From positions 33,419,252 to 33,483,251 of the forward strand of contig CM067363.1 of NCBI GenBank assembly GCA_034401795.1: 64,000 bases of DNA. The letters run 5' to 3'. Source of the stretch: Chaetoderma sp. LZ-2023a. Lineage: Eukaryota; Mollusca; Caudofoveata; Chaetodermatida; Chaetodermatidae. Each line of letters begins with the position of its first letter. Position 1 is the first letter of the stretch. Shown one piece after another: positions 24,980 to 31,643 of this stretch. The position numbers and the translations under genes are program-made. The notes under the pieces are model-generated. The model did not search any database, was not told the origin of the DNA, and worked only from the letters and a program-made list of their open reading frames with translations.

Positions 24980-25456
24980 TTAATTATCCATTATTATTTT
25001 TCCCATCTTTTCTCTCATTCTTAGAGTTAAACGTTTCACTTTTGCATCGTTTCCGCTACATTTTCTTAGTGTCCATAGTATATGCTTCATGTCTACACCT
25101 CTCGAATGATAATATAAGAAATATACACAATAATATCCGCATGTTGTCGTCAGTGCTGGTTAAACACGTTCCGCATTATAGGAATAAATACGCACATGAC
25201 GGCCATTTGATATCATTCTTCTGTCTGAAGGGCATCTTCCAAAAGGGGCAAAATATTCTGCTTTTCCACTCGATGTGTAATAAACCACAACCCAGTGCTG
25301 CCCGCCTTTATTACTGGGAAGCGTATTTATCACTAATGAAGATGGATGATATTTAATATGAATGGGTACATTGTCAATTGGAAAAACTCTGAGGAAGTGT
25401 TTATGCATTTTGTCGTCACCGAATAATAGATGCTCTATTTCAAATGTATTCAGCAT
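24980..25456 (-). pseudogene. Adenain-type cysteine protease of a Polinton/adintovirus-like element
   Basis: The gene reads leftward from the ATG at 25456 for about 158 codons and is cut by a single in-frame TAA at 25160-25162 (codon 99). The start, MLNTFEIEHLL, and the spacing fit the protease that cuts capsid and core proteins in Polintons, adintoviruses and adenoviruses. The catalytic His lies in KGGQHWVVVYY (His54). The catalytic Cys region follows the stop as TTTCGYYCVYFL. The position that carries an acidic residue in the family reads Ala (YFAPFG). With the stop and the missing acid this copy is dead. It begins 4 bp after the stop of the capsid-like fragment. Confidence 0.82.
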
Positions 25457-25460
25457 TTTT

Positions 25461-25870
25461 TTAATAATCTGTTAAGACATTAAAGTCTGATCCGATTTCT
25501 ATCATATTATCAAATTCAGCATAGCAAATCATGTGTGTTGTATCAGGTAGCGCTTCGCTAAAATGGAAGATGACTCTTAATGATCCAGTATGTGTAGGGT
25601 ATCAGTGCTCCGAATCAGCAAAATCATGAGTAAAATCATATGTGAATAGTGTCGTGCCATATTTAAAGTGTGCTTTATCAATTGGGTACCTGCGGCCTTT
25701 AAATAGAGCTCCAGTACCACTGAATAGCGAAAAGTAGGCATCAGAGTAAATGTCGTCACTAAATGATGGGCATATTGGCGATGTTGTCACCTCTTCCCCA
25801 TTAATATAGCATGTAGTGTAGGTAGTTTTATTATTATAAAACCTGAATATGTTTAGTAGTAGTGTCGGTA
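25461..25870 (-). pseudogene. C-terminal part of a Polinton-type hexon-like major capsid protein
   Basis: About 136 codons reading leftward and ending at a TAA at 25461-25463. Key blocks are CYINGEE, YFSLFSGTGALFKG, GTTLFTYDFTHDF, GSLRVIFHFSEALP and ICYAEFDNMIEI. The last two correspond to the end of the double jelly-roll capsid proteins of metazoan Polintons (the F54H12.2-like family). One in-frame TGA (25602-25604) breaks it. The N-terminal part, including the first jelly roll, is not found; the frame loses homology near 25870, beside a 41-bp tandem duplication. The position just ahead of the protease is the usual capsid-protease neighbourhood of these elements. Confidence 0.75.
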
Positions 25871-25881
25871 GTAAAATGATA

Positions 25882-25963
25882 CCACCTCCCTCAACTGGAT
25901 TTCCATTTAGACAAATGAACCCCCACCTCCCTCAACTGGATTTCCATTTAGACAAATGAGCCC
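25882..25963. repeat. 41-bp tandem duplication
   Basis: The unit starting CCACCTCCCTCAACTGGATT occurs at 25882 and 25923, nearly identical. It marks the boundary between the capsid fragment and the next minus-strand coding region. Confidence 0.85.
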
Positions 25964-26145
25964 CCACTGCCCTCTCAATCCCTGGGGCATAGGTTGTTGA
26001 GACTGGGGCCACCACGGATCGCCGAACGGCTGCCAGGGAGGTAGGATCATCCCGACACTACCACTAACAGGGGCTGAACGCCCATTTAGAGACAAGCCTC
26101 CACAGTGATATACACCACTGATCGTCATCAACCACAGGGTCGGCA

Positions 26146-26270
26146 TCTCTCTCTCTCTCCCTCTCTCTCTCTCTCTCTCTCTCTCTCTCTCTCTCTCTCT
26201 CTCTATATATATATATATATATATATATATATATATATATATATATATATATATATATATATATATATAT
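26146..26270. repeat. Composite microsatellite (CT)n(AT)n
   Basis: About 58 bp of CT repeats run straight into about 66 bp of AT repeats. It lies inside the decayed virus-like cluster. Confidence 0.98.
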
Positions 26271-28912: not shown

Positions 28913-28932
28913 TAGGTTTAAGCCGTCTGTAT

Positions 28933-29443
28933 ATGACTATGACTCTGTCACTCACAGACCAAGAAAGCAAAGAGCTAGGTGATCCTGCTCACTTGGGCCA
29001 GGCACGCCTCGGTTCAGAGGACACTGTTGCCCCTATCTCCTTCCTAGACTTCGATGAGAAGGGAGACCAGCGGGAGATCTGGGTAGCCATCCCAGTCTGA
29101 GATCTCATCGGGAACACTGATACAGTAGGACAATCGGCCATTAGCAAGGCCAAGACTGTATACAAGGGGATGGGCATCAAGGAGGGGGCAACGATGCGAG
29201 GTATGCTCGGAGTCGATGAGGCTGGAGCCATCAAGGTTATAGCTGAGTCCTATGCACAGGACCTGGTTAAGGATCTTCTAAAACCACGGAGCTCATTCTG
29301 ACAGGATGGAGAGAATCTCAAGATAGGCACCCTCGGCCTGAGCCATATCACTGTCGATGGCCAAACCGGTGCTACCGCCAGCCTCCGGCTACCAGAGGTG
29401 AAGAAGTCAAGGTTCTTTAATTTGCTGTTTAAGACCACAGGAT
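28933..29443 (+). pseudogene. Unrecognised protein of about 170 residues with two in-frame stops
   Basis: One frame runs from the ATG at 28933 to the stop at 29443, with TGA codons at 29098-29100 and about 29299. Protein-like blocks are FLDFDEKGDQREIWVAIPV, IKEGATMRGMLGVDEAG, IKVIAESYAQDLVKDLL and GTLGLSHITVDGQTGA. The last part resembles a beta-rich domain. Coherent composition across the stops argues for a former gene. Function unknown. Confidence 0.42.
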
Positions 29444-29447
29444 AGTC

Positions 29448-29727
29448 ATGGCCTCCCGTGCATGTATCATACAGATACTGGATGTACTAGACACTGTGGG
29501 TGCTGACACAGGCCCTCTACGCTATCTCCTCAGCTGCTGCTGGGATTTCATGCTTGACGCCTCCATCGTATCCTTCATATCTGGCTGAGGGGGCAGGATT
29601 CCCCGCTCTGCAGGCGAAAGAGCTGGTGCAGGAAGTACTGCCGTTTAGTCTCCCAGATATAGACGAGGCTACCACTGACCAAGTGCTAACCATCCTCGGC
29701 ACACATGACTGTACCATTCGACAGTAG
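29448..29727 (+). pseudogene. Short unrecognised gene before the ATPase, one frameshift
   Basis: An ATG at 29448 opens MASRACIIQILDVLDTVGAD. The frame then shifts to one that reads YPSYLAEGAGFPALQAKELVQ and ends at 29727. The end overlaps the ATPase start by 23 bp, a typical viral gene junction. No family recognised. Confidence 0.35.
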
Positions 29728-30352
29728 GCCGGCTGATGCTGGCCAGGTGGTGCTGATCATTGCCCCATCAGGAAACGGGAAGAACATCTTGCTGCAGGCT
29801 CTCCTCGTCGAACATCTACACTCTCAATACATCATTCTGGTGTCTGACTCCACCACTGAGGCGGTTGGCAGTAATGATCAATGGTACAATGGCCCAATCA
29901 CCAAGACGCAGAACCTGCTAGCACTGATGGAGAATCTGCTGGCAGCCCGACTGATAGAACCACTTGTTCTAGTTATCGATGTCCCTGCAATGGACCAGAA
30001 GACAGTCACCTACCTCAGCAACATCACCAGGCGCATCCGGCACACAAAGATAACTGTCTTCATCCGCTTTCAGAAGTACACCCGCGGGATCTCACCAGAC
30101 ATCCGCCACAATGCCTGGTTGCTATACTTCAGCTCCAAGTGTGGACATGCCCTGCTCGAGACCATATATGACAGTCTAACCCTCAAGGAGACCAAAGGGG
30201 ACTTTATCGCAGGTGTACAGAGGGCAGCTGAGCTGTACCACTTCATCTTCAGCAACAAGGAGACAGGTGAGCTGTCACACTTCAAGCAATCTCTGGAAAA
30301 GGCACATACCATCACCTACAAGTATTATGAGTCTCTGGAGCATCAGCATTAA
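29705..30352 (+). CDS. FtsK/HerA-type DNA-packaging ATPase, Polinton-like
   Basis: 215 codons, uninterrupted. The P-loop reads VLIIAPSGNGKN (residues 16-27): the lysine is present, but the last position is Asn instead of Ser/Thr. The Walker B strand is PLVLVIDVPA (Asp92) with no second acidic residue. Downstream, RRIRHTKITVFIRFQKYTRG followed by IRHNAWLLYF matches the arginine/glutamine-sensor region of the A32-like packaging ATPases of Polintons, adintoviruses and large DNA viruses. The protein would pump DNA into capsids. Length fits the family. The Walker A and B changes suggest reduced or lost ATPase activity despite the open frame. A poly(A)-like AATAAA is not seen; an AATAAATGG lies 40 bp downstream. 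Confidence 0.68.
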   Translation: MTVPFDSRPADAGQVVLIIAPSGNGKNILLQALLVEHLHSQYIILVSDSTTEAVGSNDQWYNGPITKTQNLLALMENLLAARLIEPLVLVIDVPAMDQKTVTYLSNITRRIRHTKITVFIRFQKYTRGISPDIRHNAWLLYFSSKCGHALLETIYDSLTLKETKGDFIAGVQRAAELYHFIFSNKETGELSHFKQSLEKAHTITYKYYESLEHQH

Positions 30353-30453
30353 TAGCATTATATGTTTCTAGACTTAAATGCATTAAATGTAATAAATGGA
30401 TATGTGTACTTTGTTACTGTATACCAGAAGAGTAAAACTGAGTTCAATTCGAT

Positions 30454-31643
30454 ATGTTTCAGGAAATGGACAGTCTAGAAATGGATAGTGCAGTGCAGTC
30501 AATACTGACCGAGATGTTGGGTGATGGGTTGATATCACCGATTCCCCATTCACTGGATGTGTTGGAGCTGGATCCTCCGGGGGACATAAGAGTTCCTCAC
30601 CTCGTCAGTCTGGGAGGAAACTCCCTCAGTGAAAAGCGTGATTGTGTCTGCTAATGGCTGGAAGCGTGACGAATGTGGTTTTGTTTGTTTGGTGCCGATC
30701 TGTTCGAATAAAGTTTTTTCCAATAAGTCCGCACTCGTCAGGCACTGGAAGGAAGTGCATGTCCAAATGTGCGTGCACTATAGCTGTCCGGCAGGTGGCC
30801 GTCCATGTGGAAAATGGAAGTGGCCATCTGATATCAGTCGCCACTTGTTGGAGAAGCACAGTGGTGTGTTCATCACTATGGAGCAGATTCGCGAGGCTAC
30901 GAATTACCATCACCTGCCACAGGATAGGGCTTTAAACACTGCATTCCTGGATCCACTGCACTTGACACCACCTTTGGTTATCCGCGAAGATCGGTGGGAG
31001 AAGGGGTCTCCTCATTTGTATGAGTTAGGAAAGCAGACAAAGAACATTTCGCTTCCATGTGATGGACTCTTACTGCCCAATCAGGACTTAGCAGCAAGTG
31101 CTACAAAGTCTGACGAAGATGTGCGGACAGTGAGAACCATACAAATTCAGAAACCAACCACCACCTCGGATGTCCTTTCGGCGGCTGTTCTGAAAAATGT
31201 CGAAGCAAAAACACTTGTGCCCAAAATAAAACGGTGTACACTAAAGCGAGACCTGCCTGGTGGATGCGAGGCATTGATCAAAGTAATCTTCAAGGCAAAG
31301 CAACAGCAGCAGCAATGTAAGGGGCTGGAGGAATCAGCAAAAGACAAATTTAAAAAAAATCGAGCAGAAGAGCCTCACAGATATGCAGCAAAATCTCCAT
31401 GCAAAAGAAGCTGAGGTGTCTGAGCTTAGAGAGAAGCTGAAGCGGATGGCCGAACGATCCAAGGACCCTATTCCTTCAAAGATCCGTAAGGCAGAGCCCA
31501 GTACACCACCTCAAGGACCCGACGACACGCAATGGTTCGCTTTCTCTCAGTATCTTGCCTGTACAATGATGCGCGATGGCAAGATAGAGTTCACGAGTCC
31601 GTTCAGTGCTCTGCCTAACATCCCAGAAGAATATGTCCTTTGA
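30454..31643 (+). pseudogene. Two-finger zinc protein with coiled coil, two frame changes
   Basis: The coding region uses three frames: 30454-30654 (acidic start, MFQEMDSLEMDS), 30629-31414 (261 codons) and 31383-31643. The middle part has two Cys/His units: CLVPICSNKVFSNKSALVRH then WKEVH, and a second with CPAGGRPCGKW, then ISRHLLEKH. A Lys-rich region with poly-Gln (KQQQQQC) follows. The switch near 31350 falls on an A8 run. The last part is a heptad-like coiled coil (KEAEVSELREKLKRMAER) and ends EEYVL. A DNA-binding or regulatory role is likely from the fingers. Whether it belongs to the virus-like cluster or a neighbouring host locus is open. Confidence 0.5.

What the first reader, a model, noticed from the sequence alone, without database searches (positions are those of the whole stretch)
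24980..31643. Endogenous Polinton/adintovirus-like virus remnant with unusual gene order
Four core virion functions of this virus class appear within 5.4 kb: adenain-type protease, hexon-like capsid C-terminus, penton-like protein and packaging ATPase. Capsid and protease lie on the minus strand; penton-like and ATPase genes lie on the plus strand. At least seven further compact frames between them match nothing I know. Gaps of 4-40 bp and overlaps are viral in style. Either this is a divergent lineage or two elements have recombined.
Basis: partly seen in the sequence, partly recalled or inferred. Interest (0 to 1): 0.88.

Follow-up and report, generated by a model that had tools for sequence, protein, structure and literature searches.

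The report
Broken Polinton nested inside another Polinton
What looked like one strange virus remnant is three mobile elements stacked together: an old Polinton whose capsid-like gene was interrupted by a second, very abundant Polinton family with no recognised capsid, which is itself cut off against a piece of a retrotransposon.

Summary
Window 24458-25854 is a fragment of an older Polinton (capsid-like C-terminus plus adenain-type protease, minus strand). Two independent copies (L038, L039) match it up to 25858/25854 and then continue as the upstream capsid-like frame. At 25855 the window switches to the AGTAGT terminus of another Polinton family, 'X', which runs to 30322 with an internal deletion at 28048/28052. 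From 30323 follows the 3' part of a gypsy-type retroelement, to which the zinc-finger frames belong. X is abundant (150 ATPase matches scored, a lower bound). One copy measures 16.5 kb, with 0.48-kb inverted terminal repeats, AGTAGT...ACTACT ends and a 5-6-bp target duplication. X encodes a type-B polymerase, an RVE integrase and a P-loop, probably packaging, ATPase; no capsid, penton or protease was recognised among 13 other genes. Of 146 placed protease copies only 2 lie within 20 kb of 143 placed X ATPase copies: this locus and its segmental duplicate. The 'unusual gene order' is nested insertion plus deletion, which is ordinary. The lead worth keeping is family X and its 431-aa protein with 1425 database relatives.

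The parts
24458..25854 (-). Fragment of the older Polinton
   Evidence: 85% DNA identity to independent copies L039 (24458-25854) and L038 (24603-25858)
24983..25159 (-). Protease, second piece (after an in-frame stop)
   Evidence: Frame shared with L009, 96.6%; the 59-aa piece alone has no Pfam hit
25160..25471 (-). Protease, first piece, adenain type
   Evidence: Peptidase_C5 E 0.0035 below cutoff; copy L038 above cutoff; 150 genome matches scored of 1612 candidates
25464..25601 (-). Capsid-like C-terminus, last piece
   Evidence: Open frame shared with L009 and similar in L039; no Pfam or PDB hit
25602..25854 (-). Capsid-like gene, piece interrupted by X
   Evidence: L039 and L038 continue the frame beyond this point, the window does not
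25855..30322 (+). Remaining fragment of Polinton family X; 25855 is its left terminus (AGTAGTAGTGTC)
   Evidence: Same terminus in L013 behind an unrelated flank; 20 of 20 fetched loci share X DNA and 0 of 20 continue past 30322
26691..27658 (-). Broken remains of the 326-aa X gene, in several frames
   Evidence: Frames match the 326-aa frame of L011 by eye
27697..28122 (+). Remains of the 127-aa X gene, running into the deletion
   Evidence: Conserved in 10 of 20 loci; window frame
28048..28052 (.). Internal deletion junction of X
   Evidence: 10 of 20 loci have 2.6-3.0 kb here; 6 do not reach 28048 within the fetched stretch; L009, L011, L013, L024 have changes of their own
28279..28680 (+). 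133-aa X gene
   Evidence: Conserved in 14 of 20 loci
28852..29442 (+). Broken remains of the 167-aa X gene
   Evidence: Conserved in 18 of 20 loci; window frames
29433..29727 (+). Broken remains of the 92-aa X gene
   Evidence: Clustered with the ATPase frames in 20 of 20 loci; window frames
29705..30352 (+). ATPase frame of X; last residues come from the neighbouring retroelement
   Evidence: 150 genome matches; the first 207-208 residues align in nearly every match listed; junction
30323..32272 (+). 3' part of a gypsy-type retroelement with a zinc-finger frame (30454-31643); not part of either Polinton
   Evidence: DNA similarity to two genome places starts exactly at 30323; integrase domains upstream in those places

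Best explanation
The locus is a nest of dead mobile elements. An older Polinton (capsid-like gene plus adenain-type protease) lay here. A Polinton of family X integrated into its capsid-like gene, leaving its terminus at 25855. The block was later copied within the chromosome by segmental duplication. This copy of X then lost 2.6-3.0 kb internally and everything after 30322, where it now abuts the 3' part of a gypsy-type retroelement. As a family, X most likely works as a self-synthesising transposon or virus: its PolB copies linear DNA by protein priming, its integrase inserts it through inverted terminal repeats, and its ATPase packages it into a particle of unknown make. Shown: boundaries, gene content, terminal repeats and copy number. 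Inferred: protein priming, packaging and particle formation.
For: Independent copies of the older element match the window up to 25854/25858 and then continue as the capsid-like frame. The X terminus recurs in L013 behind another flank. On contigs C1-C17 only 2 of 146 protease places lie within 20 kb of 143 ATPase places, both at this locus or its duplicate (the lists are the best 150 of 1612 and 6802 candidates, minus 4 and 7 places on small contigs). X ends, terminal repeats, size and target duplication in the C7 copy; PolB above cutoff in 2 of 3 catalytic-region fragments. Segmental duplication. Gypsy-type origin of 30323 onward.
Against: X's right end and the second target duplication are lost here, so integration at this spot is inferred from one end. 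The target duplication was checked in one other copy only, and there it is 5 unambiguous bp plus one ambiguous. The capsid-like gene is not recognised by Pfam or PDB profiles. Protein priming and packaging were not tested.
Confidence: 0.9

Rival explanations
1. One divergent Polinton lineage whose natural gene order has capsid and protease on one strand and ATPase on the other, as the reader first proposed.
For: The parts lie close together and two loci share the arrangement (window and L009).
Against: The two loci are one segmental duplication; 144 of 146 placed protease copies have no placed X ATPase copy within 20 kb; L038 and L039 continue the capsid-like gene where the window has X.
Confidence: 0.03
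2. X and the older Polinton were joined by recombination or template switching rather than by integrase-mediated insertion.
For: Only one X end is left here; in L009 the other side of X is truncated inside its PolB.
Against: The junction falls exactly at X's terminus, which also begins the C11 copy (L013).
Confidence: 0.07
3. Family X is a plain transposon that has given up making particles; its unknown genes serve other ends and its ATPase is a leftover.
For: No MCP, penton or protease recognised among 13 non-enzyme X proteins by Pfam; the beta-rich protein has no database homologue; some X genes show dN/dS near 0.8-0.9.
Against: The ATPase frame is kept with dN/dS 0.27 among 18 copies, though choosing best protein matches biases this downward. 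In a survey of 72 Polintons nine elements without MCP had also lost ATPase and protease (PMC4028283, section 4), so keeping the ATPase alone hints at packaging.
Confidence: 0.4

Closest known systems
Polinton/Maverick elements (PMC8097293, passages seen; PMC4028283, passages and section 4 seen)
   Same: Family X: type-B polymerase, RVE integrase, ATPase, inverted terminal repeats with AGTAGT...ACTACT ends, 16.5 kb, short target duplication. The older element: adenain-type protease next to a capsid-like gene.
   Different: X has no recognised MCP, penton or protease; of 72 surveyed Polintons 46 had full and 13 split MCP genes, and nine of those without had also lost the ATPase, which X keeps.
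Adintoviruses (PMC11071296; abstract and sections 14, 16, 25 read)
   Same: PolB plus RVE integrase; the older element has adenain-type protease next to a capsid-like gene. An OTU-like motif in X's PolB N-terminus is recalled by me, not found by Pfam.
   Different: Adintoviruses are defined there by BLASTp-recognisable Hexon and PolB; X has no recognised hexon, and no chromodomain was found in its integrase.
Meldviruses such as Meld23486 (PMC11071296, section 16 and figure legend)
   Same: Polinton-type PolB and integrase paired with unusual virion genes.

Membership tests
Polinton/Maverick (family X) | Type-B DNA polymerase of the viral/organellar kind | tested here: met
   DNA_pol_B_2 36.5 (L023) and 35.4 bits (L031) against cutoff 25.8; L020 fragment 14.4, below
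Polinton/Maverick (family X) | RVE integrase | tested here: met
   L017 frame: rve E 2.5e-7, 31.3 bits, just under the cutoff 32.6; IS481-type E 2.8e-19, below its equivalog cutoff
Polinton/Maverick (family X) | Inverted terminal repeats with AGTAGT...ACTACT ends, about 15-20 kb (size recalled) | tested here: met
   C7 copy: 484-column inverted repeat at 95.7%, ends 16.5 kb apart
Polinton/Maverick (family X) | 6-bp target site duplication | tested here: inconclusive
   One copy: TTCATT left, TCATT(T) right, five bases certain and one shared with the terminus
Polinton/Maverick (family X) | Packaging ATPase | tested here: inconclusive
   P-loop ATPase; terminase PHROG E 1.9e-5, Pox_A32 E 0.01 below cutoff, generic AAA models similar; relative P0002 carries a precomputed PF04665
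Polinton/Maverick (family X) | Double jelly-roll MCP, penton and adenain protease (common, not universal) | tested here: not met
   0 of 13 non-enzyme X proteins has a Pfam family above cutoff; structure of most could not be predicted here
Adintovirus (family X) | Hexon recognisable by BLASTp against adintoviruses | not tested
   No adintovirus reference set at hand; X has no recognised hexon, so it is not filed here
Polinton/adintovirus-like (older element) | Adenain-type protease | tested here: met
   L038 copy 26.5 bits against cutoff 21.3
Polinton/adintovirus-like (older element) | Double jelly-roll MCP | tested here: inconclusive
   Frame and position fit; no Pfam or PDB match
Polinton/adintovirus-like (older element) | PolB and integrase of its own | not tested
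   Only 3.3-kb loci around the protease were read

The most novel reading that the evidence does not exclude
Family X stands for a widespread branch of animal Polintons that replaced or remade the usual capsid-protease module: it keeps a packaging ATPase and builds a particle from unrecognised proteins, among them a conserved alpha-helical protein with a hydrophobic C-terminal helix (431 aa in X, longer in most listed relatives) that has 1425 relatives in public data and no assigned family.
Probability: 0.35. Interest if true: 0.7.

Novelty: new variant of a known kind. Interest (0 to 1): 0.4.

Why it matters
The locus itself is ordinary: nested insertions are expected where two Polinton families are abundant. 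Family X matters more. If a Polinton without a recognisable capsid and protease still keeps its ATPase, either a new virion architecture or another use of that ATPase has to be explained, and the 431-aa family offers a sequence handle for finding such elements elsewhere.

Tried and rejected
Single-element reading: rejected. Zinc-finger frames as a viral zinc-finger gene of the kind named in PMC11071296: rejected, because at two genome places the same DNA sits behind gypsy-type integrase, and 0 of 30 placed matches checked lie within 100 kb of a placed X or protease copy (30 of the 77 matches). Penton-like frame: no evidence found.

Led nowhere: seven scans of IMG/VR with ATPase, beta-rich protein, 431-aa family, protease, ATPase alignment, PolB and capsid-like pieces found no relative (the tool notes that records near the window's genome may be left out). 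The beta-rich protein (its 296-aa frame in L012) had no homologue among 1725 candidates. The model of P0004, a relative of the 431-aa protein, had mean pLDDT 64 and no Foldseek match at E<=0.001 in BFVD or PDB. The ATPase model had pLDDT 50 and was not searched. The left end of the C9 copy of X was not found in L032. dN/dS was mixed: 0.27-0.88 over 12 genes, and the integrase set held frame-shifted members and is not to be trusted. Rfam and tRNA scans of the window gave nothing.

I do not claim that X is unpublished: papers were searched, in the open-access library only. Seen of papers: PMC11071296 abstract and sections 14, 16, 25; PMC4028283 passages and section 4; PMC8097293 and PMC11071308 passages; all others search listings only.
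Full report
Setting. The window lies at C5:33419252-33483251 of an unnamed 2.44-Gb genome. It is dense with mobile DNA: an LTR retroelement (12930-23591), the region of interest, LINE-type reverse transcriptases (34.1-43.4 kb) and a further reverse-transcriptase block at 52.8-56.8 kb (the last two named by recall).

On the minus strand, 25160-25471 and 24983-25159 read as an adenain-type protease split by a stop. The window piece scores Peptidase_C5 at E 0.0035, below the curated cutoff; of the copies scanned, L009 and L039 are also below, while L038 scores 26.5 bits against 21.3. 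Directly before it lies a capsid-like C-terminus, 25464-25854, also split by a stop; no Pfam or PDB profile recognises it or its longer relative in L039. On the plus strand 29705-30352 is a P-loop ATPase frame. Its relative in L013 matches a terminase PHROG at 1.9e-5 and Pox_A32 at 0.01, with generic AAA/STAND models as good or better and all Pfam hits below cutoff. Of three database homologues, one carries a precomputed Pox_A32 domain. No penton-like gene could be confirmed.

They are not one element. Searching the genome with the ATPase scored 150 places out of 6802 first-look candidates, and with the protease 150 out of 1612; both are lower bounds. On contigs C1-C17, 2 of 146 protease places lie within 20 kb of any of 143 ATPase places: the window and one locus about 250 kb away. 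That locus (L009 with L034) shares 95-97% identity with the window not only over the Polinton parts but also over flanking DNA, window 9262-12929 and 23592-24770, so it is a segmental duplicate. The LTR element is missing from the duplicate, where the flanks meet with a 4-bp overlap, so it arrived after the duplication.

The left junction. Two independent copies of the older element, L038 and L039, match the window at 85% from 24603 and 24458 up to 25858 and 25854, then continue as an open frame upstream. In the window that frame is interrupted at 25855 by AGTAGTAGTGTC. The same terminus begins in L013 behind an unrelated flank. This is best read as insertion of one element into the capsid-like gene of another.

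Family X. Twenty 10-kb loci were read. In 10 of 20 the two sides of window 28048/28052 are separated by 2.6-3.0 kb; 6 do not reach 28048 within the fetched stretch, and L009, L011, L013 and L024 have changes of their own. The window copy thus carries an internal deletion. L009 still holds part of the 189-aa gene there, so this deletion came after the duplication. In 0 of 20 does similarity to the window continue past 30322. Other copies continue downstream with a 411-aa protein (beta-rich by eye), two small proteins with hydrophobic stretches (by eye), a 397-aa RVE integrase and, on the other strand, a type-B DNA polymerase. In the C7 copy the ends are 16.5 kb apart, form a 484-column inverted repeat at 95.7% and read AGTAGT and ACTACT; the flanks are TTCATT and TCATT(T). 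Vertebrate Mavericks are reported to have (AGT)2...(ACT)2 ends and 6-bp duplications (PMC8097293, passages). X is Polinton-type by its enzymes and ends. The polymerase has an N-terminal Rho_N/HeH-like stretch (E 2.8e-4 and 0.0035, below cutoff); an OTU-like motif after it is recalled by me and not found by Pfam.

What X lacks. Thirteen further X genes have no Pfam family above cutoff, and the protease and capsid-like pieces hit only the window and L009 among 35 loci, although few of those loci reach X's left end. In a survey of 72 Polintons, 46 had full MCP genes, 13 split ones, and nine without MCP had also lost ATPase and protease (PMC4028283, section 4). X differs by keeping the ATPase. dN/dS is 0.27 for the ATPase (18 copies) and the 133-aa protein (10 copies), with other genes up to 0.88; picking best protein matches biases the ATPase value downward. 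Window against duplicate gives 0.82, as expected for a dead copy.

The 431-aa protein. This gene, deleted from the window copy, has 1425 database relatives at E<=0.01 among 7994 candidates scored; the 120 listed are mostly longer, around 540 aa. They share a conserved core; the model of P0004 ends in a long helix that is hydrophobic by eye. Of 17 members scanned, one had a weak Pfam match (E 0.032) and 16 none; no solved structure matches at E<=1, and a medium-quality model finds no structural relative. Its neighbours in other organisms could not be read, so linkage to Polintons elsewhere is unproven.

The right junction. The frames 30454-31643 belong to neither Polinton. DNA at two other genome places (L041, which overlaps L043, and L042) matches the window from exactly 30323 onward. 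Upstream of that point L041 has Integrase_H2C2 (63.8 bits, above cutoff) and L042 Integrase_p58_C (36.6 bits, above cutoff), as in gypsy-type elements (the type is recalled). The last residues of the window's ATPase frame are the tail of that integrase frame. The zinc-finger protein itself gave 77 matches out of 97 candidates.

Order of events, inferred from nesting and identity: older Polinton; X into its capsid-like gene; segmental duplication; separate deletions in the two X copies; LTR element into the window copy. When the gypsy-type piece came to abut X is not resolved; the fetched part of the duplicate lacks it.

Judgement. The nested locus is ordinary. Family X, an abundant Polinton with no recognised capsid module, is the item worth following.

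Noticed in passing
window 12930-23591: LTR retroelement with 96% identical terminal repeats, reverse transcriptase (RVT_1 124 bits) and an envelope-like frame at 19808-21739 (Baculo_F E 2e-4, below cutoff); absent from the segmental duplicate, with a 4-bp overlap at the empty site.
   Followed up: partly
G000:C2:90076071-90089251: Five X ATPase matches in a row spaced 3124-3146 bp: an X fragment seems to have become a tandem array.
   Followed up: no
L035:3234-4977 and L009:37-655: Tandemly repeated protein module of about 115 aa leading into a frame that recalls a Polinton PolB N-terminus, on the far side of X in the duplicate; perhaps the rest of the older Polinton.
   Followed up: partly
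L029:1285-1570 and L031:4483-4777: The X terminal repeat contains an inner palindromic block of about 290 bp, beside tandem repeats of about 67 bp.
   Followed up: partly
L016:6468-7343: X gene of about 291 aa on the opposite strand ending in repeats of a DEVPQAS-type motif (21-bp units) whose number varies between copies.
   Followed up: no
window 52769-56808: G+C-rich block (about 0.54) with frames resembling, by recall, a DIRS-type reverse transcriptase element.
   Followed up: no
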